Below, in pieces: positions 3,609-60,125 of a DNA stretch of 64,000 nucleotides. Each line of letters opens with the position of its first letter. The stretch's first letter is position 1. The DNA comes from Muricea muricata (Eukaryota; Cnidaria; Anthozoa; Malacalcyonacea; Plexauridae). Both the position numbers and the translations under genes were made by a program. A model generated the notes under the pieces. The model did not search any database and was not told the DNA's origin. It worked only from the letters and a program-made list of their open reading frames with translations. The stretch is from contig OY979717.1 in assembly GCA_963855995.1 (NCBI GenBank), positions 19,877,906 through 19,941,905 of the forward strand, given 5' to 3'.

Positions 3609-5041
3609 CGTATGTTACACGTGACTCTGATGCTCTTCGAAATGCGATATTACGTGTATGGACTCCTACGGTTGGCGCAAGGTCATGAGTATCATTGATT
3701 GAAAGAAACGCTGAGAAAATTTTTGCTTCTGCTGGTCCATTTCTTGCTCCTGTTATCATACGAGATCACTTTCCAACCAATATCTATTTTCCCATGGAAT
3801 GTTATTCCGAGGACAGACCGCCATTTCAATTTAAGGAGAAATACTCTCCGGCAGTTGAGCAAAGGATTATACTTAAATGGTTACTTTAACATATCAGTTC
3901 CAGATATAAATTCATGCTCGTTCTGGATCATATTTCAATTTCGGAGGAAAGCCAACGTTGTGGTAATTTGATATTGAAAGAAGATACACCATTCCTTGAT
4001 GCTTACACAACAAATAAAGCCGCTGTCATCTCTGGCAAGAATTTTTGCATGATCGAGACGTGGCACATCGCTTGTCGTCAAAGAGGCTAAAACAATAAAA
4101 TCACGAGAAGCACCAGCTGATGGATGTTTTTGGCTACGCTTGGAAAGACAATGCTACAGCTAGTGGAGATGGTGCAGCTATGTACCCATTTGGTTTATAA
4201 AATTTTTTCGCACATAAATAGTAAGTTTACTTAATTGTGTTCAATCGACTGTATTAAAGGACAATGCAAGTAAATTACATGTCTGTGTGAATTTTGGCAA
4301 GGACATATACAGTGAGGTTTGAACAGGTTGTGATATTGTACTAACCATATCTTGTGATGGTTGGCCATCTTGTGCGAGAGAATGGATCACGCGCGACCGA
4401 ATTGGGCCACAAACTGATCTGATACATCATCAACGATGGTTTTCATATTGTTCCAAAGAGTTCGACCGAAGGAGATTTTCGACTGTCATTTTCGTTTGCT
4501 GAAACTACGCTTATTGCAAGTTTAACTAAATTACAGCATAAAGTACTTTGTTCTTTCAAAGCCGTTGTCAAATTTCACCAAATTTCCTGGAGTCCAAATA
4601 TCAAAGACATTATCGCAACGTATCGCTTGACTGACAATAGCATTTTGGTATTTTGAGAAAAGAATGTAAAATTCGTTCACCGAAGAATTTTTGGGAACCC
4701 ATCTAGTTTTATTACTCCAGTAGTTGGCTGGGGCTTTGAGGAGTCGAGAATTGCCAATGTATTTCATGCCGAAGGTAAACCTCTGAAAAAATTTAGAAAA
4801 TTCTGAAGAAGCAGTTGATATTGCGGAAAAGATCGAGGAACTTTCAAACAATTTTGGTCTTGTAATAAAAGGAACAGAAAACATGACTTCTGGCTTTGCA
4901 CTGAGTTTTAGTCATCTTTCAAACATTAGTGAGATGTTGATGAAACAGAAATTCAAAGAAATTTTAAACAGAAACTGAAAGAACTATCCCGATTTTCCGA
5001 GCAGGCAAAAATTTACTTACAGTTTCTAAACCCACAGAACT
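3609..5041 (+). pseudogene. Mab-21/cGAS-like nucleotidyltransferase pseudogene (copy A)
   Basis: Aligns by eye along its whole length with the copies at 15307-16763 and 29438-30790. It is clearly dead. The start codon is lost by a one-base deletion (AAAAATGG in B, AAAAAGG here, about 3606). The Gly-Ser loop is frameshifted near 3850, the Asp-x-Asp motif is disrupted near 3908 (the first Asp remains, the Met-Asp that follows it is lost), and several further frameshifts and stops occur, for example in the stretches around 4190 and 4318. The 3' part still reads in long pieces similar to the C-terminal helical domain of the intact copies. The antisense ORF at 4531-4884 is a shadow. Confidence 0.9.
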
Positions 5042-8842: not shown

Positions 8843-9780
8843 TCACGGTGTTAGCACTTGCGCGAGTTTTTCAGGTACTGAGTTAATCACCGTATCTGGT
8901 GTACGAATGTATAGTTCATAGCAGTCGGAACGCCAGCGGCCTAGAGTTTTTATTAGCCAAGGAGGCATATTGGCGGCAGCAGCTGTTGTTGCTGCACCGA
9001 TTCTAAAGCTATGTGGAGCATGATCAGTTTCCAAGTAACCTAACATGTTCAAAAGTTCACGCAGATTTGCATTTAGTATACAGCGCGACAGAGGCTGGCC
9101 GTTCTGTAACATGAAAAGAGGTTCGTCCGTCGTAGTTGAATTGCGTTGAAGGATATAATCGCGTAAGGCGATGACAGCGCATACTTTCGAATTGCTTTTA
9201 GCGATTGTTAATGTAGTACCCTGGCGAAATGGGTCTGTTTTAGACTGCTTAATTCGAACTTGAATGTAATCTGGGTTGTGGATATTAGGCACAAAGGCGA
9301 TGTCTTTAACTGCGAGGAAGGATTTTGAGCTTGAATAGGTAAATTCGCTAACTCGTAGAAACCCAAAAAAGGCCAATGTAAAGGCAGCCCATAGCATGAC
9401 GGTGTCAAGTTCCGGGGAGAAAGCAGGTCGTAGAAGGTCTGAAATTTGTGACAGAATTTGTATAGTTATCGGGCGGCGAGTTCGTTGTTAGGAGCTGGAA
9501 GTGCGTTTAATGCCTTTGAGGATACGGTGTAGCTGGTACATATTGTCAGTCCGAAGAGGCATGCTTTGTTCGACGTAGAAATTCGCTATAGCTGCAAGAT
9601 ATAATTTTACAGTTTGATATTGCACTTTGCCTTGAAGAGATGCGACGAAATAGAACAGGTTTTCCTCTGTTGGAGCTGGGAGAAGGTTTTCCTTGGTGGC
9701 GAGGTTGTGAGCAAAGCAGAAATCCAGGTATTGACGTACTCCAGAAGATTATGTTGTACGTGTAGAGGATGAGAGAGCTT
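8843..9780 (-). pseudogene. DIRS tyrosine recombinase (C-terminal part intact, N-terminal part broken)
   Basis: The 184-residue reading frame at 8843-9397 is the catalytic half of a tyrosine recombinase. Visible conserved positions are Arg in GFLRVSEF (residue 15), His-x-x-Arg in HSFRIGAA (about residues 128-131), GRW (about 152-154) and the putative nucleophile Tyr in LYIRTP. This matches the R-H-R-Y signature. The N-terminal core-binding part lies at 9400-9780 but is spread over shifted frames. In DIRS elements this enzyme integrates a circular cDNA in place of a DDE integrase. It sits downstream of RT/RNase H on the same strand, the usual gag-RT-RH-YR order. Confidence 0.85.
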
Positions 9781-9807
9781 CGCCAAGCAAGGAATTGACT
9801 TTACGGG

Positions 9808-11400
9808 TTAGACTCGGATCAAGGATTCGGGAATGACCGTAGGTTGTTCTGAAGCTGTAGGGACTAGTTGACGGAAACGTTGCATCTGAAATCGGGATAA
9901 AGAGTCGGAGACTGAGTTGTCTAGCCCGGAAACATGTTGTGCGGTTAGTGTGAAGTTGTGTATTAGAGTTTGCATTGTAATTTGGCGAACTAAATCCATA
10001 ATCTTAGTGACTTTGCTTCATTTTGAATTAAGGATATGAGTAACTGAAATGTTGTCGCACCAAAGAATAATGCGTTTGCCTGACCAAAGAGGGCCTCAAA
10101 CCGCGCATGCGAGGTACACGGGAAAAAGCTCTTTCCATGCTGCTCTGTATGCGCGTGAAATTGTTTTGACCAAATGCCCTGGAACCAAAGATTATTAAAA
10201 AATGCGCCATAGCCTAGTGAGCCGGATGCGTCAGTTAAGAATTCAAGCGCAGGCGAGTGTGTTGGCGCAATAGCGAGAAAAATGTTAGAACCATTCCATT
10301 GATCTAAGAAAACGAGCCGCGTAGAAACGTCTTTTTGAAAAGACGAATTAAGTTTGATGTGATGATGAGGTTCGGTAACGCCGCAAGTCAGGTTTATCAT
10401 GCGCTGGAGAAAAGCCCGGCCTGGCACAATAACGCGACATGCAAATTGAAGCGTGCCAATTAGGGATTGCAGTTCGCGTAGAGTACAAGATTTTTTTGAT
10501 TGCCAATTGTATAGCTCAACTTTAGTTCGCTCTAATTTTTCCGGAGGCAGACAGGCAATCATATTTTCGGAGTCGAGAAGCACACCGAGGAATTCGAGAG
10601 ATGTAGACGCAGCATAGGTTTTTGACGAAGCAATCGGAACATTTAAGTTTGTCATTAGAGTAAGCAGTTTGCATAAGGACGTCAAGCAGTTAGCCCGTGG
10701 GGGCGGTTCAATTAAGAAAAAATAGTCTAAAATATGCAAAATATGCCTGATATCGTAATTTGTTTTGGCAATCTATTGAATCGCATCAGAAAGTTGGTTA
10801 AAAATGTAAGGCGCGCTGCGTAGGCCAAACGGTAGGACTGTGTCGAAAAAATAAAGACCGTTCCAGTGCATGCCTAATAGCTCCCAATCTTTTGGGTGGA
10901 CCGGTACATTGCGGAAGGCAGAGCAAATATCGGTTTTTGCCATGTAAGAGCCCTTACCAAGCTGAATTATTAAGTTAATCGCATCGTCAATTTTGACATA
11001 CTGCAAGGAGTATGTGTCTTTCGAAATATGATCGTTCACGCTTGCACCGGTTGCTTTTGGGTGTGATAAGTGAAAAATTGTGCGCCAGTCCGTCGAATGC
11101 TTTTTAGGAACAACGCCAATTGGGTAGACTTGAAAATTTGGAAATGGTGGGCGTAAAAAAGGACCTGCAGTGCGACCTAAAGTGACTTCTTTTAGCAAAT
11201 TTTTGGAGACAAGGTCAGGGTGATCAGCGGCAGATTTAAGATTTTTTGAAAAGCGAGGCGCGCGGGGGCCCTCAAACCTATGCGAAAACCCTCCTGAAAG
11301 CCTTGAATTAAATGCGAGACAAATGTAACATTAGGATGAAATTGTAATTCGTGTTTTAGGTAAGTTACATTGACTGGCGTAGAAGTGCTAAGATTGTTAA
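9808..11400 (-). pseudogene. DIRS reverse transcriptase-RNase H, inactivated
   Basis: RT motifs read clearly from 11200 down: GPFLRPPF, VYPIGVVPKK, WRTIFHLSHP, a KTDICSAF motif holding the first catalytic Asp, and LPFGLRSAP. An in-frame TAG follows DAIQ near 10775, and the YxDD-type box downstream reads LDYFF (about 10720-10735), so the second Asp is Tyr. Both changes should abolish activity. The RNase H region follows, with the ...FLTDAS...GYGA motif near 10220-10240 and the DNSVSDSLSRFQ tail typical of DIRS/Gypsy-like RNase H (about 9885-9925). Gag lies directly upstream, the recombinase downstream. Confidence 0.85.
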
Positions 11401-11408
11401 TATAAGTG

Positions 11409-12478
11409 TTAACGTTCTCGTTTGGTATGGCTCGACTCCGCAGCTCTTGCATCGCGTTCAATGGCGGGATGCCGGCCGACGCAGCCGGATCGATTGCAAC
11501 GGTGTTTGAATGGACATGGGTTGCTGGCGCAAGGGACCTTTCGGTTGTAGTTGCGACAGAGGTCGTCATTGGAACGTGGCGTGGATCTAGTTGGGGCAAT
11601 TGGACATGCATTAACAAAGTGGTCGGCGCTACCACAGACGTGACAGGCGGTTTTGGCTAGCCCAGTAAACTTCTCTAAGTACAGTTGAGGATCTCGGTGA
11701 GCCCAAGAAATAGATATATCGTTCGCAGCCTTTTTACGGAATGCAATATCGTAGGCATACCAGGCCATGCCTGAGAATTTTCGTTGAGCATCGCGGATGG
11801 ATTGTTGATAGGCAAAAAGTTCTGAGGCCTTGTATGGAGAGAAATGGACAGCGACGCTTGCAAATGTGTTAAAGGCTGTTAGCCAACGCTCAATGGAGTC
11901 TATTCTTTGGCGTTTTGGTTGAGTTAAAGAGACTGGAATCGAAAGACCCGAGTTGCCTAGTGAGTCGAACGATATCTTTAAGTGCTCGTCGTGACCATCA
12001 ACGTTCTCGGACGTTCACCATTGCGCATCGACGTGATTATCTTGGGAGGCAGTTGTTGGGGTAGCGAGGATGAAGATCCAGGAGAGACGGTTGGTTCAGG
12101 CGGGGTGTGGACACTGGACAGCTGAGGCAGGATAGCATCGCGAATCGAGGAAGAAATCAGCGACTGCAAAGTTTCCATCTGCTCGGCCGTGAAACCACTA
12201 TTAGGCGTAGATTCTTCAGTGACAGGTCGGGACGGTACTGTAGAGTCGGTGGGAGCAGTTGAAGGAGTTACGGCTGGGGGGTTTGAAACTGCAACAGCGG
12301 GCCTGGGAGCGGCGCGAAGACGAGCAATAAGAGTTCTTCTTCAGCCAGTAGGAGACAGTTGTAAGTTGTCGCAGCGTAACCGAAGAACTTCGGTAGTCAA
12401 GGTCTCCAAAGTGTCTAGAGCAGGTTGTGGATCAGCACGACGAGAAGACGTTGATGTCGATCTTCTGATGCGAGGCAT
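11409..12478 (-). pseudogene. DIRS gag with SAP-like motif and CCHC zinc knuckle
   Basis: Starts MPRIRRST at 12478. A SAP-like DNA-binding motif follows, interrupted by an in-frame TGA near 12342. Then come a Pro/Ser/Thr-rich linker, a helix similar to FTAEQMETLQSLISSSI, and, after a frameshift near 11990, a capsid-like region. The zinc knuckle CHVCGSADHFVNAC fits C-x2-C-x4-H-x4-C (about 11600-11650), followed by a CCCH-like cluster. The N-terminal architecture equals that of the two gag relics at 53750-54875, so both belong to one DIRS lineage. Confidence 0.8.
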
Positions 12479-13612: not shown

Positions 13613-15455
13613 ATCCTTTGTCACTCCATATACTTGCAGTCTATCACACGGAAATAAAGAGTAATAATTAGAAATTTATAAAATATTTAATGTTGCCAGT
13701 ATCCAACAACTGTAGTTGTATAAAGAAACTGTAGGGAGCCACCCTAACTTGTGACTAAACGTCACTCGAGTTCCATCCTAACCATGTGGTAGCAATACGT
13801 TTGAAATATTCCAGCAATGTTATCAAATGGAAGGGCATGTTATTGTCACAACCTGAAAGTATGAAACTATGACTATTGAGAAGAAATAATATTGTATTGC
13901 ACCAGCTTACACATAACATCACCGAAATTTTAAAAATTATAACATCCTATCCTGGCCAATATACAACTTTGTTTTACTTTATCTTATAATGTAACAGGTA
14001 CATTTTACTCGTAATTTGACCACAAAACACGGAGAAAAATACCGGCGAAAAGCAAATGTATTGAAACTGATTAGCATGGAAATTGATTGCATGAAAGTCG
14101 TAAATTTCTCAACAGAATATTCATATAGTCGGCTATACGACTTTTGCTATTTCTACATAGAGTTGATATTTTGTGATCAAAATGCATGCTTGAAAAAGAA
14201 ATTGAATAAATTATACTCAAGGGCAAAAATCAAGATGAATGGAAAAAGGCTGGAATTCGTCTATTGTTTTGGCTGCAAAAAACTAACTTATATATCGACA
14301 TTATTCACTAGTTCCATTCCCCCAAAAATTTTTAACCAAAATAGATTGTACTAGTATACACTGCTTTGATCCACCGCAGCATTTCGGGTATTGACGTGAG
14401 GTCTGGAATGAGCTTGAAGCAGATAGGTGGGATAAAGCCCCCAATCACTTTTAAAAAGTCGTAGGATAAAAATGCCGGCAAAAAGCAAGGCATGGCTACA
14501 TTGTATTGGAAGTACTTAAAAATTCATCCAATTTGCAAATTGATATGCCTGGGACTGCGCAGTTGCTTTAGAAAATAAAGTTCTTCTCACAAATTTGCAT
14601 AAAAAAGTCTTGAAAAATCGCATGGCATTGTCACAAATGGTGGTCCCGGCCTGAACTCGAATCGCTAAATATTCATTAATTTTACAGGTAATAGTTTAGT
14701 TTTCGATTGTCTTTCCGTTTGCGTTTGCAATGCCCCTCTTTCTTTTTCACTTTTCAAATTTTATTTCTGGAACCCCGCTGCAAACTAGTCGGAATTTGTT
14801 TCTTTCTCGGTAGACTTTTTCCGGTTCTCTTAAATTAATTGAACTTAATTTTGGCCTAATTTCAATTTATCTCAGGGCAATGTACAAAAGTGAGAGTTTG
14901 CAGAATGACAAAAAAAACAAGAAGATCGATTTCCAGATAAAATGAAAATAATTGAACTTAATTTTGACTTAATTCCAATTCATCTCAATACAAAAATGAG
15001 AGATTGCAAAATAACAGAGAGTAGGAAGATCGATTTCCGGATAAAATGAAACTAGATTGAATAATATGTATAAAAATTCTAATTGTTTCGAGGTTACAAA
15101 AACAGAAGCCCCGTGACTGCATGAATAGACTATACGTAATATCCATTGGGCATATACAAACAGTTTGACTTACTGATCGACCTTTTGTGAATTGTACAAT
15201 TATACTCTTTTAAAAAGGCTCCAGTTACTAATATTGGTTAGCATCACGGAAAAAGGCATAGACTAGAGATTGAGCCTTTTTCACAGGTACTATTAATACA
15301 TTAAAAATGGCGTATGCTACACGTGACTCTGATGCTCTTCAAAATGCTATATTACGTGTATGGACTCCTACAGTTGGCGCAAGGTCATGGGTATCATTGA
15401 TTGAGAGAACGCTGAGGAAATTTTTGCTTCTGCCGGTCCATTTCTTGCTCCTGTT

Positions 15456-16763
15456 ATGATGCGAGATCACTTTCCAACCAATTTCCATTTTCCCATAGAT
15501 TGTTATTCCGACGGCAGACCGCCATTCCGATTCAAGGAAAAAATACTCTGCGGCAGTTGGAGTGAAGGATTATACTTAAATGGTTACTCTAACACGTCAG
15601 TTCCAGATATGGATTTCATGCTCGTTCTCGATCATATTTCATTTTCGGAGGAAAGCCAATGTTGTGGTAATTTGATATTGAAAGAAGATACACCATTCCT
15701 GGATGTTTACATAACAAATAAATCCGCTGCCAATCTCTGGCAAGAATTTTTGCATGATCGAGACGTGGCACAAAGCAATCGCTTGTCGTCAAAGAAGCTA
15801 AAAGAAAAACTTCGCGAGAAGCACCAGCTAATGGATGTTTTGGGTTACGCTTTGAAAGACAATGCTACAGCTAATGTAGATGGTGCAGCTATGTACACAT
15901 TTCGTTTAGACAATTCCTTTTCACACATAAATAGTATACTTAATTCAGTTCAATCGACTATGTCAAAGGACAATGCAAGTAAATTACATACCTGTGCGAA
16001 TTTTGCCAAGGACATTTATAGTGAGGTTTTCACAGGTTGTGATATTGTACTAGCCATATCTTGTGATGGTTGGCCATCTTGTGCGAGGGAATGGATAACA
16101 CGCGATCGAATTTGGCCACAAACTGATTTAATACAGAAGATTATCAACGACGGTTTTCACATTGTTCCAAAGAGTTCGGCCGAAGGAGATTTTCGACTGT
16201 CATTTTCCTATACTGAAACTACGCTCATTGCAAGTTTAATTAAGTTACAACATAAGGTACTTCGTTCTTTCAAAGCTGTTGTCAAATTTCACCAAAGTTC
16301 CTGGAGTCGTAACATCAAGGACATTATCACAACATATCACCTGAAAACAATAGCATTTTGGTATTTTGAGAAAAGAATGCAAAATTCATTCACCGAAGAA
16401 ACTGTGGGAACCCATCTAGTTTTATTACTCCAGAAGTTGGCTGAGGCTTTGAGGAGTCGCGAATTGCCAATGTATTTTATGTCGAAAGTAAACCTCTTTA
16501 AAAATATTGACAATCCAGAAGAAGCACTTGATATTGCGGACAAGATCGAGGAACTTTCAAAAAATTTTGGCCTTGTAATAAAAGGAATTGAAAACATAAC
16601 TTCTGGCTTTGCACTTAGCTGCAATATTCTTTCAAACTTTCATAAGATAAGTGTTAAGCATCTTGAAGGACGGAATCCTTTACTTGATGAAAAATTTAAA
16701 TGCATATTCCAATCTTTAGAGGAGACAAGAACTTACTTACAGTTCCTAAACCCACAGAACTGA
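15456..16763 (+). CDS. Mab-21/cGAS-like nucleotidyltransferase (copy B; 5' frameshift)
   Basis: A 435-residue frame in one exon. Family: Mab-21/cGAS-like receptors (cGLRs), which make cyclic dinucleotide or related second messengers after ligand sensing. Visible: Gly33-Ser34 in the GSWSEGLY loop, Asp51-x-Asp53 in PDMDFM, a candidate third acid Asp196 in GCDIVLAIS, then WPSCAREW, DFRLSFS and YHLKTIAFW in the helical domain, and a YFMSKVNLF tail as in cGAS. No cGAS-type Cys/His zinc thumb is seen. The original start is the ATG at 15307 (MAYATRDSD), but a one-base deletion near 15405, relative to copies A and C, breaks that frame; translation from 15456 would lose about 50 N-terminal residues including the start of the spine helix. 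May be a sequencing artefact or a truncated gene. The C-terminal tail is longer than in copy C by about 35 residues. Confidence 0.8.
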   Translation: MMRDHFPTNFHFPIDCYSDGRPPFRFKEKILCGSWSEGLYLNGYSNTSVPDMDFMLVLDHISFSEESQCCGNLILKEDTPFLDVYITNKSAANLWQEFLHDRDVAQSNRLSSKKLKEKLREKHQLMDVLGYALKDNATANVDGAAMYTFRLDNSFSHINSILNSVQSTMSKDNASKLHTCANFAKDIYSEVFTGCDIVLAISCDGWPSCAREWITRDRIWPQTDLIQKIINDGFHIVPKSSAEGDFRLSFSYTETTLIASLIKLQHKVLRSFKAVVKFHQSSWSRNIKDIITTYHLKTIAFWYFEKRMQNSFTEETVGTHLVLLLQKLAEALRSRELPMYFMSKVNLFKNIDNPEEALDIADKIEELSKNFGLVIKGIENITSGFALSCNILSNFHKISVKHLEGRNPLLDEKFKCIFQSLEETRTYLQFLNPQN

Positions 16764-27179: not shown

Positions 27180-29437
27180 TCTTTTGAAATAAGAAGTTTT
27201 TAGTCGTGTCGTAATACATGAAATGAAGATGCAACTCCTCTGTCCTCTGCGCCGGGCATTTGCCAATTACTTCTTGAATAAGTTGAATATATACCAACAG
27301 AAAGTAACTGAGTTATTTGTGAATGGAAAAAGGATAATTATATAGTTGTTAATTTGTCGGATCAATCGAAGTTAACGCATATTGTTCTCGAGTAAGCAGA
27401 CTGTGGTAAGTAAGCCTTGGGCGAAAATACTATAGTCTGCGTAGGAGGCTAGAGTAGACCCAACGTAACAGCCTGCCAATGAATGGCGTATATATAGAGG
27501 ATATTACTGGTGGGATATATGAGTGGTGAAAACGATATTTTACGAACAAGCGCAGCGAGTGAGTAAAATATTGTTTTCAACACGAGAACAAAAATATTCA
27601 TATCTTCAAGCTACCGTGTACTGTTCATTTTATTATATGGTCAGACGTCGGAACAAGCGAACAGAGAACATATAAACTTCATTTTGTACATAACTGAAAT
27701 TCTAATTACAAAAACGTGAACAAAAATTAATGAGTTGCAAATGCAGCATCCTTTAGCATATTTTTCATTTTCATTCGTGTGTTTTCATTTTTATGTTCTT
27801 CCGAAAAGCTTATCAAATAATCATCGGAAAATTTAGAAAAAAGTCGGGAAGCTGCCATATTTAAAACAACGACACAATAAAAACTAAAAAGGGGCCAAAT
27901 CAAGTCACGATGATCCCGCTGGAAAATGCACCCATTTTTTGCGCGTTACATATTTTTTCATATCTTGACTAGTGAAAATATGGAAAATACGAGGGTTTTA
28001 CAGTTTACTGTAAAACATCATAGCCATTTAATAAACAGCCACATTTGTCGCTCCACATCTTTGCAGTGTATCACACATGTACAGAAATAAAAAGTAGCAA
28101 TTAAAAACGTATAAAATATTTAATGTTGCCAGCATCCTAAACTGCAGTCGTAGCTAAGTTCGTCACATCACATCAACTGCCAAGTTATTTGTAATAACCT
28201 GCATCCTGCAGCAAGGCTCAACTTTTTCAACAAGAAGGTCCTGCACGGAAAGAAACTGTGGGGAACCAACTTAACTTGTAGCTTAATGGAAGGGCATGTT
28301 ATCGTCACAGGCTGATTTTGAAAGTATGACTAATGAGAAGGAATAATATTGTATTGCACGAGTTTACACAGGATATCACCGAAATTCTAAAAATCATCAC
28401 ATCCTATCCTGGCCAATATACAACTTTGTTCAACTTCATTTTATGTAACAGGTACATTTTACTAGTAATTCGACCACAAAATATGCAGAAAAATACCGGC
28501 GAAAAGAACATGTATTGGAAGTGCTTAGCATGGAAATTGATTGCATGAAAGTCGTAAATTTCTCAACAGAATATTCATATAGTCAGCTATACGACTTTTG
28601 CTATTTCTACATAGCGTTGATATTTTGTGATCAAAATGCATAATTGAGAAGAAATTGAATAAATTATACTCAAGGAGAAAAATCAATATGAATGGAAACA
28701 GGCTGGAATTCGTCTATTGTTTTGGCTGCAAAAAACTAACTTATATATCGATATTATTCACTAGTTCCATTTCCCCCAAAAGGTAAACCAAAATAGATTG
28801 TACTAGTGTGCAATGCTCTGATCCACCGCAGCATTTCCGGTATTGACGTTAGGTCTGGAATGAACTCAGCAGACGGGTGGAAAACGACAGACGGGAAATA
28901 GTATAGTTTTCATTTGCCTTTTCGTTTGCGTTTAGGTTTGCAATGCACCTCTTGCATTTTGATTTTTCAAATCTTATTTGTGGAACCCCGCCGAAAACTA
29001 GTCGGAATTTGTTTCTTTCTCGGCAGACATTTTTCGGTTCTCTTAAATTAATTGAACTTAATTTTGACCTAACTCCAATTTATCTCAGGGCAATGTACAA
29101 AAGTGAGAGTTTGCAAAATGACGAAAAAAGAGGAAGATCGATTTCCGGATAAAATGAAACTAGATGAAATATTATGTATAAAAATGGTAATTGTTTCTAG
29201 GTTACAAAAACACAAGCCCCGCGACTGCATGAACAGATATACGTGTTATCCATTGGGCATATAAATACAGTTTGACTTACTGATCGACCTTTTGTGGAAT
29301 GTACAATTGTACTGTTTTAAAAAAGGTTCCAGGAATTAATATTGGTTAAAATCACGGACAAAGGCACGGACTAGCGATCGAGCCTTTTCCACAGGTACTA
29401 TTAATACATTTTGTTGACAACGTAAGGTGAATTAAAA
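27180..29437. other. 5' flank of unit C, no gene recognised
   Basis: From about 27740 it follows unit A and from about 28040 unit B. It serves as the empty reference for the insertions at 677-1181 and 1214-2450. The ORFs at 28333-28548 and 28943-29152 have counterparts in A and B that are interrupted differently. Confidence 0.4.
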
Positions 29438-30790
29438 ATGGCGTATGCTACGCAGGACTCTGATGCTCTTCGAAACGCTATATTACGTGTATGGACTCCT
29501 ACGGTTGGCGCAAGGTCATGGGAATCATTGATTGAAACAAAAGCTAAGGAAATATTAGCTTCAGGCGGTCCACTTCTTCCTCCTTCTATGATGCGAGATC
29601 ACATTCCAAGTAATCTACATTTTCCCATGGAAATTTACTCCGACGACAGACCGCCATTCCAATTTAAGGAGAAAATACTCTCCGGGAGTTGGAGTGAAGG
29701 ATTATACTTAAATGGTTACTCTAACATGTCAGTTCCAGATATGGATTTCATGCTCGTTCTGGATCATATTTCATTTTCGGAAGAAAGCCAACGTTGTGGT
29801 AATTTGATATTGAAAGAAGATACACCATTCCTCGATGCTTACATAACAAATAAATCCGCTGCCAATCTCTGGCAAGAATTTTTGCACGATCGAGACGTGC
29901 CACAAAGCAATCGCTTATCGTCAAAGAAGCTAAAAGAAAAACTTCGCGAGAAGCACCAGCAGATGGATGGATTTGGCTACGCTTCGAAAGACAATACTGC
30001 AGCTAATGTCGATGGTGCAGCTATGTACACATTTCGTGCAGACAATTCCTTTTCACGCTTTAGTAGTTTACTTAATTCAATTCAATCGACTGTATCCGAG
30101 CAAAATGCAAGTTATGTGAATTTTGGCAAGGACATTTTTAGTGAAGTTTTCACAGGTAGTGATATTGTACTAGCCATATCTTGTGACGGTTGGCCATGTT
30201 GTGCGAGGGAATGGATTACGCGGGATCGTATTTGGCCACAATTTGATTTGGTGGAGAAGATAACAAGTGATGGTTTTCATATTGTTCCAAAAAGTTCGGT
30301 GGAAGGAGATTTTCGGTTATCATTTTCGTACGCTGAAACCACGCTCATTGAAAGTTTAAGCAATTTGCAGCACAAGGTTCTTCGTTCTTTCAAAGCCGTT
30401 GTCAAATTTCACCAAAAATCCTGGAGTCCAAATATCAAAGAAATTATGACAACCTATCACCTGAAAACGGTAGCATTTTGGTATTTTGAGAATAGAACGC
30501 CCCAGTCGTTCACCGAAGAAACTGTGGCAAATCATTTAGTTTTATTACTTCAGGAGTTGGCTAAGGTTTTGAGGAGTTGCGAACTGCCAATGTATTTTAT
30601 GCGAAAGGTGAACCTCTTTAAAAATATAGAAAAGTCTGAAGAAGCGGTTGGAATAGCTGAGAAAATCGAAGAACTTTCAAACAATTTTAATCTGCTGATT
30701 AAAGCATTAGAAAATATAACTTCTGGCATTACAATGCTGAACTTTAATATTCTTTCCATCATTCGTAAGATAGGTGCTAAGTATTTTTAA
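29438..30790 (+). CDS. Mab-21/cGAS-like nucleotidyltransferase (copy C, most intact)
   Basis: A 450-residue single-exon gene from ATG 29438. N-terminal helix about residues 1-50; Gly83-Ser84 in the GSWSEGLY loop; metal-binding Asp101-x-Asp103 in PDMDFM; candidate third acid Asp242 in GSDIVLAIS; then WPCCAREWI, DFRLSFSY, YHLKTVAFW and YFMRKVNLF, the order seen in cGAS and Mab-21 proteins. All three acids are present, so an active enzyme is predicted; ligand and product cannot be read from sequence. No zinc-thumb Cys cluster is visible, as in insect cGLRs. It stops at KYF, about 35 residues earlier than copy B, through a TAA in sequence otherwise still homologous (30788-30880). A TTTTCCACAG acceptor at about 29393 suggests a spliced 5' UTR. 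Family role by knowledge: nucleic-acid or pathogen sensing in innate immunity; role here is inference. Confidence 0.88.
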   Translation: MAYATQDSDALRNAILRVWTPTVGARSWESLIETKAKEILASGGPLLPPSMMRDHIPSNLHFPMEIYSDDRPPFQFKEKILSGSWSEGLYLNGYSNMSVPDMDFMLVLDHISFSEESQRCGNLILKEDTPFLDAYITNKSAANLWQEFLHDRDVPQSNRLSSKKLKEKLREKHQQMDGFGYASKDNTAANVDGAAMYTFRADNSFSRFSSLLNSIQSTVSEQNASYVNFGKDIFSEVFTGSDIVLAISCDGWPCCAREWITRDRIWPQFDLVEKITSDGFHIVPKSSVEGDFRLSFSYAETTLIESLSNLQHKVLRSFKAVVKFHQKSWSPNIKEIMTTYHLKTVAFWYFENRTPQSFTEETVANHLVLLLQELAKVLRSCELPMYFMRKVNLFKNIEKSEEAVGIAEKIEELSNNFNLLIKALENITSGITMLNFNILSIIRKIGAKYF

Positions 30791-51843: not shown

Positions 51844-52309
51844 TTACTCCATACGGTCTCGACAGGATTCAACATTGGGCAATACGGCTCCAGACGACAG
51901 ATACAGTAGTTGCTCAATCTCACATTCTTCAAACTTACTATGACAAGGAACATTGTCACAAACCACGACAACTGAGTCCATGGTTTTGCCAACAGGGAGA
52001 TGTTCCAGCATTTCCAGCAACCACCCTTGGCAGTATCGGCGCTTTAAACGCTCCACGACCTGCGGTCATGTATATTATCTGATAGGCTGATAATGCACAG
52101 ACAACATGAATATGTTGGGTCTCTTGGATGTTGGGAGCGCCATAACTGCTCGCTCACCAACAAGTGCTCTCCCTTGACCCCTACGGTCTCCCTGACTGAC
52201 CTGTTGAACATAATGTCTTCGCAGTTCTTTGTTGGCGCCCGTGTTCATAGTAGCAGAAATAGCATGAGCCTTTTTTATGGTTATAAGTTTCCCCTGCAAA
52301 TAATTGTGG
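51844..52309 (-). pseudogene. IS630/Tc1-type DDE transposase fragment (C-terminal part)
   Basis: The frame at 51844-52056 contains VVVVCDNVPCHSKFEE, the D-N-x-P-x-H motif around the second catalytic Asp of IS630/Tc1 transposases, and a decayed LPNVES (normally P-x-L-NP-x-E with the third acid). Upstream (52075-52299) are frameshifted pieces with ISATMNTGANKELRR and QGRALVGERA. The stretch 51989-52309 is nearly identical, without gaps, to 59511-59831. Confidence 0.75.
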
Positions 52310-53749: not shown

Positions 53750-54309
53750 TCAACAGCTAGTATACACGCATGCTTGAAACGATGTTGGAGACACTATACA
53801 AGCTCTTCTACAGGACTGAGACGCGACGCTCGACGTTAGGTTTGGACAAGAATCTGCGGTGTTGACCGCGATCTCGTCTAGAACAGCTGGGCTGCTGTTG
53901 TAACAAACTTGCTGAGGCATCGTGGACATGGCTTCGACAGCGACACGGGCCGCATTGGTTGCTATAACGGCTACCGATTCTTCCACGCTACGAGAAACAG
54001 TTGATCATATCTTACATGCGCCAAATGGTCCTCGGTAAATAACGAAGATTGTGGGTTTTCACGTTAAGGAAATGTCAACGTAGATGGCAAATTTGCGTTC
54101 CCTGCGGCATCTACCGTTGGCCTCGAAGACGAAGTAATTGCGTGTTGTTGTAGCGAGAGACTAAAGCATTCTTTTGTCCATGGTTAGGTAGTCCTCTCTC
54201 AGTACATTGGCGTCGTAAACTCTCCGTATCACTATTGGCCGCCGTTGATCGAGATCGATAATTGCGGTTAGAAATCCCTTTGGCGTTTTTACGACGAACA
54301 GGAGGCATT
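53750..54309 (-). pseudogene. SAP-gag relic 2 (DIRS type)
   Basis: Starts MPPVRRKN at 54309, followed by the SAP-like motif SLRRQCTERGLPNHGQKNAL (about 54210-54150) and then, in shifted frames, helix and linker pieces such as AVIATNAARVAVEAM (about 53940-53985). Same layout as relic 1 directly upstream. No RT or recombinase follows. Truncated. Confidence 0.65.
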
Positions 54310-54875
54310 TCGATGAATAATAATTTGCGTTGAAATTCAAAATTATTGTAGCAGCTCCTATCTCTTGAGACGAATTTGGCAGGAACTTCGTTGAAGCCAT
54401 TAGCATACGGCGCAGTGGTTGTCGAAGGCGGTACGGAACTTTCCATTTGTATTTCGACGCTCGGGACAGCAACGTTGGTCGACGCTGTTTCAGATTGGGT
54501 TGTTGGTTGAGAGTGTTGCCGTTGAGGGATCGTGTTAGTCATGGCTTCGATGGCAGTGCGTGCGGCGTTTGACGATATCTTAGCGATGGCTTGTTCGACG
54601 CCTCGGCTTACGAGACTTTGAATTTGCGTTAACTGTGTCGCGGAAAAAACTGACTCCGATGGCGAAGGTTGTATATTTCGTGCTTCTGGTGACTGTCGAC
54701 TGTTTGCTTCGGCTTGTGATTGAGCGTGTTGTTGCAAACGTGAAACAAGGACATGTCGACGGCCATGTGTTGGTAAGCCTTTCTCAGCGCATTTCTGACG
54801 AAGGCTCGCGATGTTATCGCCATTGACTGCTGGTGTTGAATTGGTCGGTTCACTTCTGCGTCTCAGAGGAGGCAT
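54310..54875 (-). pseudogene. SAP-gag relic 1 (DIRS type)
   Basis: Starts MPPLRRRSEPTNS at 54875. SAP-like motif SLRQKCAEKGLPTHGRRHVL, Gln/Ser-rich linker, helix FSATQLTQIQSLVSRGVEQA and ISSNAARTAIEAM. The helix parallels the one in the DIRS gag at 11409-12478. The frame runs on into relic 2, so one element is inserted in, or tandemly joined to, the other. Confidence 0.7.
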
Positions 54876-55182
54876 TGTCGCAATATCAGTGAATGAAAAA
54901 GCCTCTATTTTAAATTTTAAACGTTTATGAGCGCGTAGAACCGTACTCGTGGTAGCTTTACACAAAGTGATAGTTAGAAGGTCGCGGAATGTTTAACGTT
55001 ATGGTGACGCGGATTCTCATTGGTTAGTTTTATTCCAATTAAGGAATGGCATTTTGATTGCGTAGGCTCGCTTCCGATACACGTGTTTGTATCGTGCTAT
55101 GGCACAAGGAGGAAATGACCCAAAGTGGCGACTGATTTATATCACACCTTTTTGAAGTAAATGCATTGTCCCATTAACTTAA

Positions 55183-55398
55183 AGTGCCCCTACAGGCAAA
55201 TTTTTTTATTGGCGATGTTAAATCTAGGCATGATTTCTATTATATCTGTCCAAAAATTTTTTGATTTGGTCAAATCGTTCGTATTTTATGACCGTTTAAA
55301 GTTGGCCTTCGATGGACCTTGTCCGTCATTTTTAGAGCCTGGAACGAGCACGTTTTGTGACGTAATCCAAGGTAGTCGGCTTCTAGCTTTGGTGCGCT
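55183..55398 (+). repeat. Left terminal repeat, or solo TTAA MITE
   Basis: 216 bp between TTAA at 55179-55182 and 55399-55402; outer end AGTGCCCC, inner end GGTGCGCT. Inverted homologue at 59237-59460. Confidence 0.75.
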
Positions 55399-55598
55399 TT
55401 AATGTCAAGATCAACTTTTAGTTACACTCTACCGTTTCTGGTTTGGTTGCATTTGGTTAAACTTTACACTGTTTTTTTTAAATATCATGTCTTCTGATAA
55501 TGAAACCGATTCGGTGGAGAGTTATCAAACGGATGACTCGGATATAAACTTTATTCAGGGGTATATTATGGAATGCCCCGAGCGTGAAAATTCCAGCA

Positions 55599-56165
55599 AT
55601 GGGCGCATTTGCCCACGAACCTTTGGCCAACGAAGAGTGGCTGGAAAACTATCATAGACAAGAAAGAGAGCGCCTAGAGTTAGAAGAAAAGCTAAGAAAT
55701 AGGCTAGATGGCTCTGTGGAAGTGAGCGAGTGGTAAGTGAATTAGTAAACATGGATTAAAATCGTATTTGTTTCGTGCAATTTTAATTGTATTTGGAAAG
55801 GTAGCGTTGAAGTCTTCCTCATCTCTAAATGTTTTTACCACAGGTGTAGTTGTGGTAATTGTGGGATCACACTCCTCACTAATTTAAAGGAATGTCAGTG
55901 CTGTGTCGCACTGGAAGGATGCGATGAAGCTATGAAAAGCGAAGAAGTCATCATAGATCTCAAAGCCGACGGTATTGAAATGTGTATAACTCAACACCCC
56001 GGATTCAACTGCATACGCCTCCAAAAGTGGAGTTTGAAGCAAGCTGCAGTCAATTACAAAACCAAGAATAAAACAAAATACAGTCAAGTGGGAACACAGA
56101 ATAGGTTGAATAATTTATTTAATTTATACTCTTGCTTATGTTCAACACCACAGCATATTTTATAA
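55599..56165 (+). CDS. P2X7 C-terminal (ballast) domain-like protein, two exons
   Basis: Exons 55599-55732 and 55844-56165 (donor TG|GTAAGT, acceptor TTTTTACCACAG) give 151 residues. Exon 1: MGAFAHEPLANEEW, then a charged helix. The junction makes a Trp followed by CSCGNCG, ECQCC and GCDEAM, then IEMCITQHPGFNCIRLQKW. This order of Cys pairs, CITxHPGF and a following Trp is the zinc-binding cytoplasmic ballast domain known from the vertebrate P2X7 C-terminus. There is no channel part. An ATG at 55487 starts a Ser/Asp-rich frame (MSSDNETDSVESY) that would join with a one-base shift near 55570, so the true N-terminus may be longer. The end lacks the usual final Arg/Tyr/Trp block and is probably truncated. 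It sits within the TTAA element, convergent with the transposase. Confidence 0.7.
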
Positions 56166-57270
56166 GCTTGACTTTACTGTTCAAGACCACAGCATATTTC
56201 ATAAATTCTTATTTGTTTTTGTTTTTAAGTTTTTACGCAGCATCTCTTATAGGGAGTTTACAAGACTGGTACATGGTCCCCTCAGTAATAGGAGAATTCC
56301 ACTACCTGCATGTGCTTACACTGCAATTAGGAATAAATTTCCTGTTGTTGATAAAGAAAGTTTTATTGGATATTCTGATGACTCAACTAGGAAATTCTAG
56401 CATGGTTAATACGTATACATCTGGGGCTGGTTGTTCAAACAAAAGTAACTAAGTAAGATAACTTAACCCTGGGTTTACTTATTTATTTCAATAGTTTGTT
56501 CCAGAAAAGATCCATCCCCCTCCCACCGGGGAAATTAACAATACCACCTTCCCTTCATTAGACAGTTTATACAAATTTAAGACATCAGACAAACCCCCCA
56601 ATGGTTGGAAATTCCTGGATGACAGAAATTTCATCTGTTGGTGGGTTATGGATCTTTTTTGGAATGACCCAATCTACTTTATAAACTTGGGGATATGTTT
56701 TCAAAAATATCTTGTCATAAATGGATTTGTGGAATGCACAAACTAAAACAGGTGGTTAAATTTTAACCTGGGATTAGCATTAACCTACTTTGCAACAACT
56801 GGTCCCAGATGTAACAAACATCTACAATTTGTCATAAAATTTTTTGTTCATTAATATAAATTATTCTTTTGAACATAAATAGAAATGGTGGGCATAAATA
56901 AACTGAAGTGAAGTGCAAGTGTGTTATGTAACTTATTTTACTCTGTTAAGCTCCAATGTGCCCAAATGTGCCCTGCTTTATTCTCTCTCTGTCTAATGTC
57001 AGTTGAATTTAATGTCCAAGAGGACAACAGAGTAAAACAAGTATTACAGATTTGGCAAATTTGTGCAGTATACTGTACGGAATGAAACTGGTGACCGCTA
57101 CCAACTTCTCACTTGTTCAGTGGGCAGTCTTTCACATTTTTGTGCCCCTTCATAGGATGCCCACATGATCCGCAATGAGGAGCAACCCTGCTTTTTCCCA
57201 AATCTTTTTCTTTTCCTCGTTGCTCCTGATAATGTAATACTGAAAAGTAAAAAAAATAAACATAGTTTAC

Positions 57271-59167
57271 TTATGTAAACAGATTGTGGTATGTTATCCA
57301 ATCAGAGTCAGATCTGGAAAGTACTTGGAGTAGTGGGTGGAACATCTTGGATGGCAATTTGACTCCTGTCAGATCTTTTTTTATTGCATCTTGCTTTGTT
57401 TGCTTAGTAAGGATGGAATTCATCAGAGGCAGGCACATTTCTTTCAGTTCTAACTCGGCATCTCTTAACTGCTCTTTGGTAGATCTCAAGAATGTATTAT
57501 AAATATCTTGGACATATGCTGTAAAATACTTTAAATAATTATTTACAAACAGAATTTAACATGAATATTGTTCATGCAGAGAAAACTCACCAAAGTTCTG
57601 TGCAACCCTAACACTTCGGATTGTAGCCTCTCCATTCTTGAACTTTGGATAGCTGACCTTTAGCCTTTCAGAGTTGTCAGAATTCAGTTTCTTGTCCCTC
57701 TGATGGTTTAGATTAAATTCAGGACAGCTAGAATATGTCTATCAACAATAAATAGAAATATTACTATCTTCCTGAGATAAAGTATCTTAATTATATAAAA
57801 ATTCATGCTTGGAAGCTTGAGTGAATATAAGGATGCCAGTAAACCAAGTATATTATAGTGACTGAAAAACTACCAGGCAGCTTTTTTATCCAATTCCTAA
57901 CCTGCAATATTGACCAACATAACTATATGCAATCATCTTTGGAGAAAAGTGATTTAGGACATTGTGAAAGCCTTCCAAACAGCTGGTTTGTGCTAATGGA
58001 GAAGCTTTCTTGATTCCTTCCATCAGCCTTTCGTTGGTAAGCGCAGTACACACTTTTGTATGTGGGGTAGAATCTATAGGAAAATAATAAATAGGCTATA
58101 TCTGTCTGATATAATATAATTAATATAATAGATGTACATGTATATATACACGCATACCAATAGTCAACCACTTTCTAGCTGGAATGTCACTTCCATGAGC
58201 ACACTTGTTGAAGAGTGGATCACTGTGATTTGAATGCTGATTGACAATATGCCTCAAGAAAGACTTGAATTTGGCCCAGATTACAAGCCCACTCATTCAC
58301 TGCCTCACACTCTTTCTCTTTGCCAATTTTGGAAAGAACCTTTCTGATTTCTGCCAAAAAATGGGAAATTTAATAGCAAAAATTGGTTCATTTATATCAA
58401 CATTTTGTAATTCATTCATCATGCATAAGATGTCCAGTTATGTTTATAGTCCAGTTGTCTCTTATTTTAACCTGAAAACAGGTTTTGGCAATACTTGAAG
58501 ACTAGATTGACTAGATGTAAATCACTGGAATTTGGAATATCTTTGTACATGTTATTAATTTATAGTAGAGAAATTGGGAATGCTTTTACTTTTCTTCAAA
58601 TGCCAGATGTCAAAATAGTGGACAATGCTCTTCAAAACATCCCTCATGTACTTAGCAATCGATGTGTGTCTGTCAGAAATAAATGTTATGCAGAGGCCAT
58701 ACGTAATGAGGTAGTCCATGCTCAACTTAAGCTACACAATTTTAGTCGATACAACTCGGTTATTAAAGTTCGTAAATATATTCAAAACAAAGACTCACCA
58801 TACGTCTATCCCTGGGACTTTGTGCAGGTGGTTCGCTTGAAGATTCCTTCGACGGAGCATCATGTATACTTCGGAAGACACAAATACCAAAATCGTCGCT
58901 CCTTAACTTGGGAAAATTATGTCTCGTTTGTCCAGGTAAAATTGAAAACCTTCGCTCGTAATCTTCAGGCAAAAAATGCGCTGAACATAGCGTTGATGCC
59001 TTCGAAGGTTGAAAGACACGCTTTGCCTTTACGAAGTCTACCCAAATTATCCTTCTCCGCTTAGCGTCAGGGCGATCGTCATTAAAAAAAGGTATAGTAT
59101 GGAGACTTATACCCAAACTAAGAGACGATTTATTCGTACAATTTGCAGATACACAGCTATTCACCAT
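57271..59167 (-). pseudogene. THAP transposase, Kolobok-like, internally deleted
   Basis: Exon 58799-59167: THAP domain (CVSANC, WVDFVKAK, LCSAHFLPEDY) up to donor G|GTGAGT. Region 58560-58735: ISDRHTSIAKYM then HYFDIWHLKK, which holds a catalytic-type Asp and the conserved WH. Region 58157-58380: GKEKECEAVNEW, then in another frame WAKFKSFLRHIVNQHS and LFNKCAHG. Exon 57902-58073: CLEGFHNVLNHFSPKM. Exon 57591-57738: YPKFKNGEATIRSVRV. Exon 57271-57518: ends WITYHNLFT and stop. The first 150-200 residues of the catalytic core (first Asp) are missing between the THAP exon and SDRH, and one frame break is visible, so the enzyme is dead. Splice sites are consistent throughout the 3' exons. Confidence 0.75.
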
Positions 59168-59236
59168 TTTTATTTATCGAAAACGCACGCATTATATGTA
59201 GATGCCAACTGTCAATATACAATGAATTTGCATTAA

Positions 59237-59460
59237 AGCCTATGTATGTTCACGAGTACCTTGGATGACGTCACGAAATATGCTCGTTCCAGACTTCTGG
59301 TAACAACGGACAAGGTTAATCGAAAAGTGCTCTTTTGCCAACTTTAAATGGCCATAAAATACGGACGAATTGACCAAATCGAAAAATTTTTGGACATATA
59401 CTATAGAAATCATGCCTAGATTTAATATCGCCAATAAAAAAATTTGCCTGTAGGGGCACT
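59237..59460 (-). repeat. Right terminal repeat, or solo TTAA MITE
   Basis: 224 bp, reverse complement homologue of 55183-55398; TTAA at 59233-59236 and 59461-59464. Confidence 0.75.
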
Positions 59461-59510
59461 TTAAATTTATGTTGTTCATAAATTGGCTATAGTTGATGCG
59501 CCGACATGTA

Positions 59511-60125
59511 CCAACAGGGAGATGTTCCAGCATTTCCAGCAACCACCCTTGGCAGTATCGGCGCTTTAAACGCTCCACGACCTGTGGTCATGTATATTAT
59601 CTGATAGGCTGATAATGCACAGACAACATGAATATGTTGGGTCTCTTGGATGTTGGGAGCGCCATAACTGCTCGCTCACCAACAAGTGCTCTCCCTTGAC
59701 CCCTACGGTCTCCCTGACTGACCTGTTGAACATACTGTCTTCGCAGTTCTTTGTTGGCGCCCGTGTTCATAGTAGCAGAAATAGCATGAGCCTTTTTTAT
59801 GGTTATAAGTTTCCCCTGCAAATAATTGTGGATAGTTGATGCGCCGACATGTACTTCAAGTTCGAGTAGGGTTCTTTCTGACAACTGGCTCCGCGTAACG
59901 TAGGATCACTCTCAATCATTGCTGCAAGAGCAACGATCTGTTCATCAGTACACTTTCTGCTTCTTCCCCATTTCTGCTTTGCTTCGTCGCGACCTTCACG
60001 AATCCATGTACTCCCGTTTTGTGATTTACACCGAGCTGTCCAGCAAGTTGTTGCCAATTACCACCGTCATACAATTCTACTTCTATCCGCGGGTGATACA
60101 GTTGTGTACCGTAGAGTAATAACAA
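59511..60125 (-). pseudogene. IS630/Tc1-type DDE transposase fragment (N-terminal part)
   Basis: In shifted frames from 60125 down: a helix-turn-helix WQQLAGQLGVNHKT, the linker GRSRKCTDEQIVALAAMI, then VGASTIHNYLQGKLITIKKA (second HTH) and ISATMNTGANKELRR. At 59511 it breaks off. The overlap with 51989-52309 is 321 bp with two mismatches by eye. The overlapping segment is bordered in this copy by a 23-bp direct repeat (ATAGTTGATGCGCCGACATG..., 59489-59511 and 59832-59854). Confidence 0.75.

What the first reader, a model, noticed from the sequence alone, without database searches (positions are those of the whole stretch)
55183..59460. P2X7 ballast-like domain gene travelling inside a Kolobok-type transposon
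A gene encoding the zinc-binding cytoplasmic tail domain of P2X7, with no channel, lies convergent to a THAP transposase between long inverted repeats ending in TTAA. If the unit is mobile, it offers a way for this orphan domain to spread in invertebrate genomes, and possibly the source of the domain fused to a P2X channel in vertebrates.
Basis: partly seen in the sequence, partly recalled or inferred. Interest (0 to 1): 0.88.

Follow-up and report, generated by a model that had tools for sequence, protein, structure and literature searches.

The report
P2X7 tail-domain gene carried by transposon
The stretch is a recently moved but internally damaged copy of a jumping gene that carries, beside its transposase, the same small zinc-binding domain that forms the tail of the vertebrate P2X7 receptor; that link is already published, and this genome gives strong extra evidence for it.

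Summary
It carries a ballast-domain (KolX) gene convergent to a THAP transposase. It is mobile: a copy with 3 differences in 4286 bp lies elsewhere with unrelated flanks that diverge exactly at TTAA, and unoccupied copies of its target repeat exist. Both genes recur together: all 15 two-ended copies found hold KolX, and 71 of 150 scored KolX hits lie convergent to a Kolobok D1 exon within 10 kb. KolX and transposase co-diverge and are under similar purifying selection, dN/dS 0.12-0.17 and 0.10-0.16. The window copy is non-autonomous: a 2.3-kb internal deletion removed the exon of the first catalytic Asp, and its KolX is damaged. This is a new member of that known kind. Open: 150 apparently intronless ballast copies in this genome have no identified carrier.

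The parts
55179..55182 (.). left TTAA target site duplication
   Evidence: alignment with the sibling copy L015 ends exactly here
55183..55390 (+). left terminal inverted repeat, begins AGTGCCCC
   Evidence: 40 scored matches in the genome
55487..55733 (+). KolX exon 1; frame shifts near 55599-55600 (26 nt fewer than in L017); donor GTAAGTG
55845..56104 (+). KolX exon 2, cysteine-rich ballast core (CSCGNC...CQCC...CITQHPGF...), two residues shorter than L017 and with Arg at a cysteine kept in 29 of 29 other copies
56230..56400 (+). KolX exon 3 with stop, FLRSISYREF...PLPACAYTAIRNKFP; acceptor reads TAAG where relatives have TAGG
   Evidence: start inferred from relatives
57112..57210 (-). transposase C-terminal exon with CCHC-like knuckle (CGSCGHPMKGHKNVKDC), seen by eye; limits approximate
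57320..57519 (-). transposase exon T10, frame broken
57592..57717 (-). transposase exon T9
57901..58074 (-). transposase exon T8 with the putative catalytic Glu (LEGFHNVLN)
58156..58354 (-). transposase exon T7, 18 residues missing and frame shifted versus L017
58588..58728 (-). transposase exon T6: putative second catalytic Asp (SDRH) and D/CxxH signature (FDIWHLKK); first 15 residues lost
58724..58730 (.). junction of a 2.3-kb internal deletion relative to L017 (removes coil, acidic, Cys and D1 exons); a few bases match on both sides
   Evidence: window-extract 4553-4559 aligns to both L017 4874 and 7132
58802..59167 (-). transposase exon 1, THAP domain
59253..59460 (-). right terminal inverted repeat, ends GGGGCACT
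59461..59464 (.). right TTAA target site duplication

Best explanation
The unit is a non-autonomous, internally deleted copy of a Kol0-type Kolobok transposon. Relatives of about 6.6 kb encode a THAP-DDE transposase and, convergent to it, KolX, a ballast-domain accessory protein. Shown here: TTAA insertion, recent movement of this very copy, recurrent pairing of both genes, co-divergence and purifying selection. Inferred: transposase from other copies binds the ends through its THAP domain and moves the defective copy in trans by cut and paste at TTAA. Also inferred, at about 0.7: KolX is a working part of the transposition machinery (a zinc-dependent, perhaps guanine-nucleotide-binding, factor) and not a passenger, since it is conserved as strictly as the transposase. 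The confidence below is for identity, mobility and two-gene architecture.
For: Ends and TTAA. Sibling L015: 3 differences in 4286 bp, homology stops at TTAA on both sides. 23 of 41 matches to the joined flanks run across the empty TTAA site, best 98% (recount; 2 of the 41 are the window itself; the target is a repeat that mostly ends 24-27 nt right of the site). L009, L010, L011, L013, L016 and L017 hold every exon class searched, including D1 (GDGRHDSMGHSAK) and D2/DxxH; in L010, L011 and L017 each of these was found without a stop or break, while L009, L013 and L016 show stops or frame breaks. 15 of 15 two-ended elements contain KolX, 8 of 15 also a D1 exon. 73 of 150 scored KolX hits lie within 10 kb of a D1 hit, 71 of them convergent, against a mean of 1.9 (maximum 8) for random placement. 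Mantel r 0.81, 0 of 5000 permutations as high; 0.66-0.68, 0 of 20000, with one member per family. dN/dS KolX 0.12-0.17, transposase 0.10-0.16 in 5 comparisons of L017 with the sister subfamily.
Against: The window copy has no D1 exon and a damaged KolX, so neither gene product is made intact from it. 77 of 150 KolX hits have no D1 hit within 10 kb, though only the best 150 of 461 D1 candidates were scored. The five dN/dS comparisons share L017 and are not independent; two closer copies give KolX 0.33-0.34 and transposase 0.22-0.34. Rank correlations of the distance tests are lower (0.34-0.41). KolX function was not tested by any means. The ballast assignment rests on one Pfam profile: no PDB sequence match, no structure predicted, and two of three other family cores score below the cut-off.
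Confidence: 0.9

Rival explanations
1. A host ballast-domain gene that happened to be hit by, or caught between, transposon ends (passenger or chance juxtaposition).
For: Window KolX is broken; 77 of 150 KolX hits lack a D1 hit within 10 kb; 146 of 150 single-stretch ballast copies are not within 10 kb of a scored D1 hit.
Against: 15 of 15 two-ended copies carry KolX, 71 convergent pairs, co-divergence, shared purifying selection, published KolX of Kol0 (PMC9587614).
Confidence: 0.04
2. Same element, but KolX serves it only as a cargo acting on the host (for example by blocking a host defence), not in the transposition reaction. (This rival concerns only the role of KolX.)
For: Purifying selection without any catalytic motif known to me; D1-less derivatives keep KolX exons (window, L015, L020, L023).
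Against: Nothing here separates this from a role in transposition.
Confidence: 0.25
3. A KolobokP-type or piggyBac-type element.
For: TTAA target, also used by piggyBac (PMC9587614 background).
Against: Ends are inverted, not long direct, repeats; accessory gene matches P2RX7_C; termini are 5'-AG/CT-3', the RR/YY rule given for Kolobok in contrast to piggyBac; DxxH signature and THAP present. No piggyBac or His-Me nuclease model was run on the element beyond Pfam scans of its exons.
Confidence: 0.01

Closest known systems
Kol0 lineage of Kolobok transposons (Kolobok-1_XT type) with KolX; Kojima and Bao 2022, PMC9587614
   Same: TTAA target duplication, 5'-RR/YY-3' ends, DDE transposase with D/CxxH, second protein KolX with P2X7-ballast similarity
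   Different: The strand layout of Kol0 was not stated in the parts read, so convergence is reported from this genome only
Orphan ZCD/ballast genes of invertebrates (PTHR36981), Rump et al. 2020, PMC7016195
   Same: Ballast domain without a channel, conserved cysteines; by eye the counterparts of R546 and R578 are kept in L017 and the window (the first is Cys in L009)
   Different: That paper saw fewer than 10 per species, no large families, and its main text does not hold the word transpos-; here two non-overlapping lists of 150 places each, broken copies included
Vertebrate P2X7 C-terminal ballast
   Same: Pfam P2RX7_C match
   Different: No channel attached: the 17 P2X_receptor matches lie on C14:0.92-1.06 Mb, the nearest listed ballast hit about 3.2 Mb away (ballast lists capped at 150)
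Xenopus Kolobok/T2-MITE elements, PMC6004289
   Same: THAP, DDE, TTAA, AG termini
   Different: No short MITE form among the 40 scored matches to these ends

Membership tests
Kolobok superfamily | TTAA target site duplication | tested here: met
   empty sites
Kolobok superfamily | termini 5'-RR and YY-3' | tested here: met
   AG...CT; rule from PMC9587614
Kolobok superfamily | DDE transposase with C/DxxH signature | tested here: met
   D1 GDGRHDS, D2 SDRH, FDIWHLKK, LEGFHS in L017 and relatives; catalytic assignment by eye. The window copy itself lacks D1
Kolobok superfamily | THAP DNA-binding domain (usual) | tested here: met
   PF05485 40 bits; usual feature per PMC6004289 passages
Kolobok superfamily | H2CH zinc motif between D2 and E | tested here: inconclusive
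   NHLHW...KCAHG seen by eye in L017 exon T7; its first half is missing in the window copy
Kol0 lineage | second protein KolX with ballast similarity | tested here: met
   direct comparison with Kolobok-1_XT KolX not made
Kol0 lineage | transposase groups with Kol0 in a tree | not tested
   no reference Kolobok sequences were fetched
KolobokP | long terminal direct repeats | tested here: not met
   only inverted repeats at the ends
KolobokP | His-Me finger nuclease as accessory protein | tested here: not met
   the accessory gene matches P2RX7_C; Pfam scans of the exons named no nuclease
P2X7 ballast fold | sequence profile match | tested here: met
   33.3 bits over 23.5 for the L017 full protein; of 3 other family cores one is over the cut-off (30.1) and two below (18.3, 14.2)
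P2X7 ballast fold | zinc-coordinating cysteines | tested here: inconclusive
   9 cysteines invariant in 5 exon-2 sequences; over 29 copies these nine are kept in 24-29 of the 26-29 that have a residue there. Not mapped residue by residue on P2X7; one of the nine is Arg in the window copy
P2X7 ballast fold | three-dimensional fold | not tested
   no structure was predicted; the fold tool takes proteins read letter for letter from DNA, and this one is spliced

The most novel reading that the evidence does not exclude
The ballast domain is an ancient, selected transposition cofactor that has been distributed on a very large scale, and by more than one carrier: besides the spliced KolX of Kolobok, this genome holds at least 150 apparently intronless ballast copies (better P2X7 profile scores, up to 138 bits), 146 of them without a scored window-like Kolobok D1 exon within 10 kb. 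P2X7 could then descend from a second, so far undescribed carrier, and the 'ancestral synteny' of orphan ballast genes reported in 2020 could be pieces of the transposon itself.
Probability: 0.2. Interest if true: 0.65.

Novelty: new member of a known kind. Interest (0 to 1): 0.42.

Why it matters
It gives independent, quantitative support in one genome for the published view that P2X7's cytoplasmic ballast came from a transposon protein: recurrent pairing, co-divergence, similar purifying selection and recent movement. It also shows that ballast copies can number in the hundreds, against the earlier statement of fewer than ten per species, so orphan ballast genes should be checked for transposon ends before synteny or gene-family arguments are built on them. 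Copies with open KolX and transposase exons make a transposition assay possible that could give KolX, and so the ancestral ballast, a first function.

Tried and rejected
MITE explanation rejected: no two-ended element shorter than 4.27 kb among 15. Fixed ancestral host locus rejected by the sibling and the empty sites. No P2X-ballast fusion seen, within capped ballast lists. A first splice model (exon 3 starting at SISY) was replaced after comparing families: the full protein then rose from 25.8 to 33.3 bits. Single-exon Pfam and PDB searches gave no ballast match. Carriers of the single-stretch ballast copies were sought without success: near window-like D1 4 of 150, none convergent; near PF20700 Mutator hits 0 (65 of the 114 places entered); near the best 150 of 1373 THAP candidates 2. 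A piggyBac test (PF13843) did not complete. The random-placement control used guessed lengths of 20 Mb for contigs other than C1 and C3 (C2 is really 71.7 Mb), which overstates chance. One nearest-neighbour 'pair' (C1:49228173) uses a D1 that belongs to the adjacent element; it is not among the 71.

A filing attempt failed only because four fields were not written as objects.
Full report
WHAT IS THERE. The element runs from 55183 to 59460 between two TTAA sites (55179-55182, 59461-59464) with inverted ends AGTGCCCC/GGGGCACT; the inverted arms are 135 nt (92%) plus 43 nt (86%). On the + strand lie three KolX exons (55487-55733, 55845-56104, about 56230-56400). On the - strand lie transposase exons from a THAP domain at 59167 down to a CCHC-like knuckle near 57112.

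FAMILY ASSIGNMENT. Spliced KolX of L017, a copy of the same subfamily with all exons searched (and an insertion near its right end), matches Pfam P2RX7_C at 33.3 bits (cut-off 23.5, E 5.6e-08). Exon 2 shows CxCxxC...CxCC...C...C...C; nine cysteines are invariant in five sequences, and over 29 copies they are kept in 24-29 of the 26-29 with a residue there. Exon 3 ends in PLPACAY.AIR..FP. By eye the arginines corresponding to P2X7 R546 and R578, the two that Rump et al. found kept beyond deuterostomes (passages), are present in L017 and the window; in L009 the first is Cys. Evidence the other way: the bare L017 core scores 20.7 bits, two of three other family cores score below the cut-off, and no P2X7 chain in the PDB was matched by sequence. 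The THAP exon scores 40 bits against PF05485. L017 also shows GDGRHDSMGHSAK, SDRH, FDIWHLKK and LEGFHS, the DDE and D/CxxH pattern, recognised by eye.

STATE OF THE WINDOW COPY. Compared with L017, about 2.3 kb is missing at 58724-58730, which removes the coil, acidic, Cys-rich and D1 exons. Exons T7 and T10 are frame-broken. KolX exon 1 has 26 nt fewer and shifts frame, exon 2 has Arg where 29 of 29 compared copies have Cys, and the intron-2 acceptor is altered. So the copy is non-autonomous, and its KolX would not be made intact.

IT MOVED RECENTLY. L015 (C3:16681246-16685531) differs at 3 of 4286 positions, and the similarity stops exactly at TTAA on both sides. The window's joined flanks find 41 matches, 2 of them the window itself; 23 cross the junction, best 98% (recount). 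These are other copies of the repeat into which the element jumped; on the right they mostly extend only 24-27 nt beyond TTAA, where that repeat ends. Four two-ended elements of 4.27-4.30 kb without a D1 hit exist (window, C3 copy, two on C1), and a fifth without D1 has a large insert (L023), so the derivative has multiplied, presumably in trans. For one of the four, C1:13343386, the interior was not read beyond the KolX locus L029.

THE TWO GENES TRAVEL TOGETHER. A 30-nt end pattern with up to 3 mismatches has 28 places in the 453-Mb genome. Of 18 loci fetched around them, 15 hold KolX and at least one transposase exon and 3 (L018, L019, L025) hold neither in the stretch read. The 212-nt end has 40 scored matches: 15 two-ended elements, all with KolX, 8 with a D1 exon, and 10 single ends, of which 5 have KolX and 3 D1 nearby. 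Beyond this family, a search with KolX exon 2 scored 150 hits of 596 candidates and a search with the D1 exon 150 of 461. 73 KolX hits have a D1 within 10 kb, 71 in convergent layout, mostly 2-5 kb apart, against a mean of 1.9 (maximum 8) for random placement. The other 77 have none among the scored D1 hits.

CO-DIVERGENCE AND SELECTION. For 29 convergent pairs (of 30 fetched, of 73), protein distances of KolX exon 2 and D1 exon correlate: r 0.81, rho 0.41, 0 of 5000 permutations as high. With one member per family r is 0.66 (16 families, rho 0.34) and 0.68 (14, rho 0.39), 0 of 20000. Between L017 and the sister subfamily (L009, L010, L011, L013, L016) dN/dS is 0.12-0.17 for KolX and 0.10-0.16 for the transposase. 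These five comparisons share L017 and are not independent. Two closer copies (L014, L020) give KolX 0.33-0.34 and transposase 0.22-0.34; recent unselected mutations would explain that, but it is the weaker result. KolX thus behaves as an integral, selected gene of the element.

HOW IT PROBABLY WORKS. Shown: TTAA-targeted insertion, recent mobility, two-gene architecture. Inferred from family knowledge: the transposase binds the ends by its THAP domain and cuts and pastes by its DDE core. Inferred with less support: KolX assists this reaction. A guanosine nucleotide sits in the P2X7 ballast according to PMC7016195 (passages), and the P-element transposase, a THAP protein, uses GTP (recalled, from no call); a nucleotide-sensing role of KolX is a speculation.

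WHAT IS KNOWN. Kojima and Bao 2022 (PMC9587614; parts 1-3 of 6 and section 16 read, plus passages) state that KolX of the Kol0 lineage has clear similarity to P2X7 476-595, adopts the ballast fold, and that P2X7 arose by fusion of a P2X4-like gene with KolX; they also think Nanor a likely domesticated KolX. In the held library a full-text search for 'KolX' found only this paper, and one for Kolobok plus P2X7 found it and one review (listing only). Rump et al. 2020 (PMC7016195, passages only) described the orphan domains, fewer than 10 per species, no large families, and two linked marker genes across invertebrates. Those markers, and the frame with an N-terminal THAP domain (printed TAHP) and ballast they noted in Ixodes scapularis, may be parts of Kolobok elements; this was not tested. 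The Xenopus Kolobok paper (PMC6004289, passages only) supplied the THAP, H2CH, TTAA and AG-terminus features.

WHAT REMAINS OPEN. P2RX7_C itself scores 150 hits of 743 candidates, up to 138 bits, most of them covering the domain in one stretch and therefore apparently intronless there, some with stops. None overlaps the 150 exon-2 hits, and only 4 have a D1 hit within 10 kb, none convergent. Their carrier was not found. P2X channels (17 matches) are confined to C14:0.92-1.06 Mb, with the nearest listed ballast hit about 3.2 Mb away, so no P2X7-like fusion is seen in these capped lists.

VERDICT. Real, correctly read by the first stage, and already explained in print; a well-supported new member of a known kind, with clean evidence for mobility and for KolX as a selected transposon gene, and one open lead in the intronless copies.

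Noticed in passing
G000 (window's genome), 150 places: At least 150 apparently intronless ballast (P2RX7_C) domains, up to 138 bits, some with stops, not overlapping the 150 scored KolX exon-2 hits and with no identified transposase partner.
   Followed up: partly
G000 C1:21231323-21231646 (+): A ballast-domain match (62 bits) inside an open frame of 2543 aa: a possible fusion of the domain into a very long protein. Its letters were not read.
   Followed up: no
window 54111-54992 (-): 293-aa open frame with a SAP domain (51.6 bits), directly left of the element; by eye it holds a second SAP-like motif, and a similar short frame lies at 53750-54004.
   Followed up: partly
window 8843-12014 (-): Frames suggesting a tyrosine-recombinase retrotransposon: a sub-threshold Phage_integrase match at 8843-9487 (23.3 bits, cut-off 27.1) and reverse-transcriptase-like frames recognised by eye (9990-10772 matched no Pfam family).
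   Followed up: no
window 15405-16763 and 29426-30790 (+): Two long open frames with Mab-21 nucleotidyltransferase and Mab-21_C domains, similar to each other.
   Followed up: no
window 59481-59511 and 59824-59854; window 51989-52242: 31-nt direct repeat (90%) right of the element; the right flank has a 99% second copy at G000 C2:19929894-19930147, that is window 51989-52242, about 3 kb left of the element, same strand.
   Followed up: no
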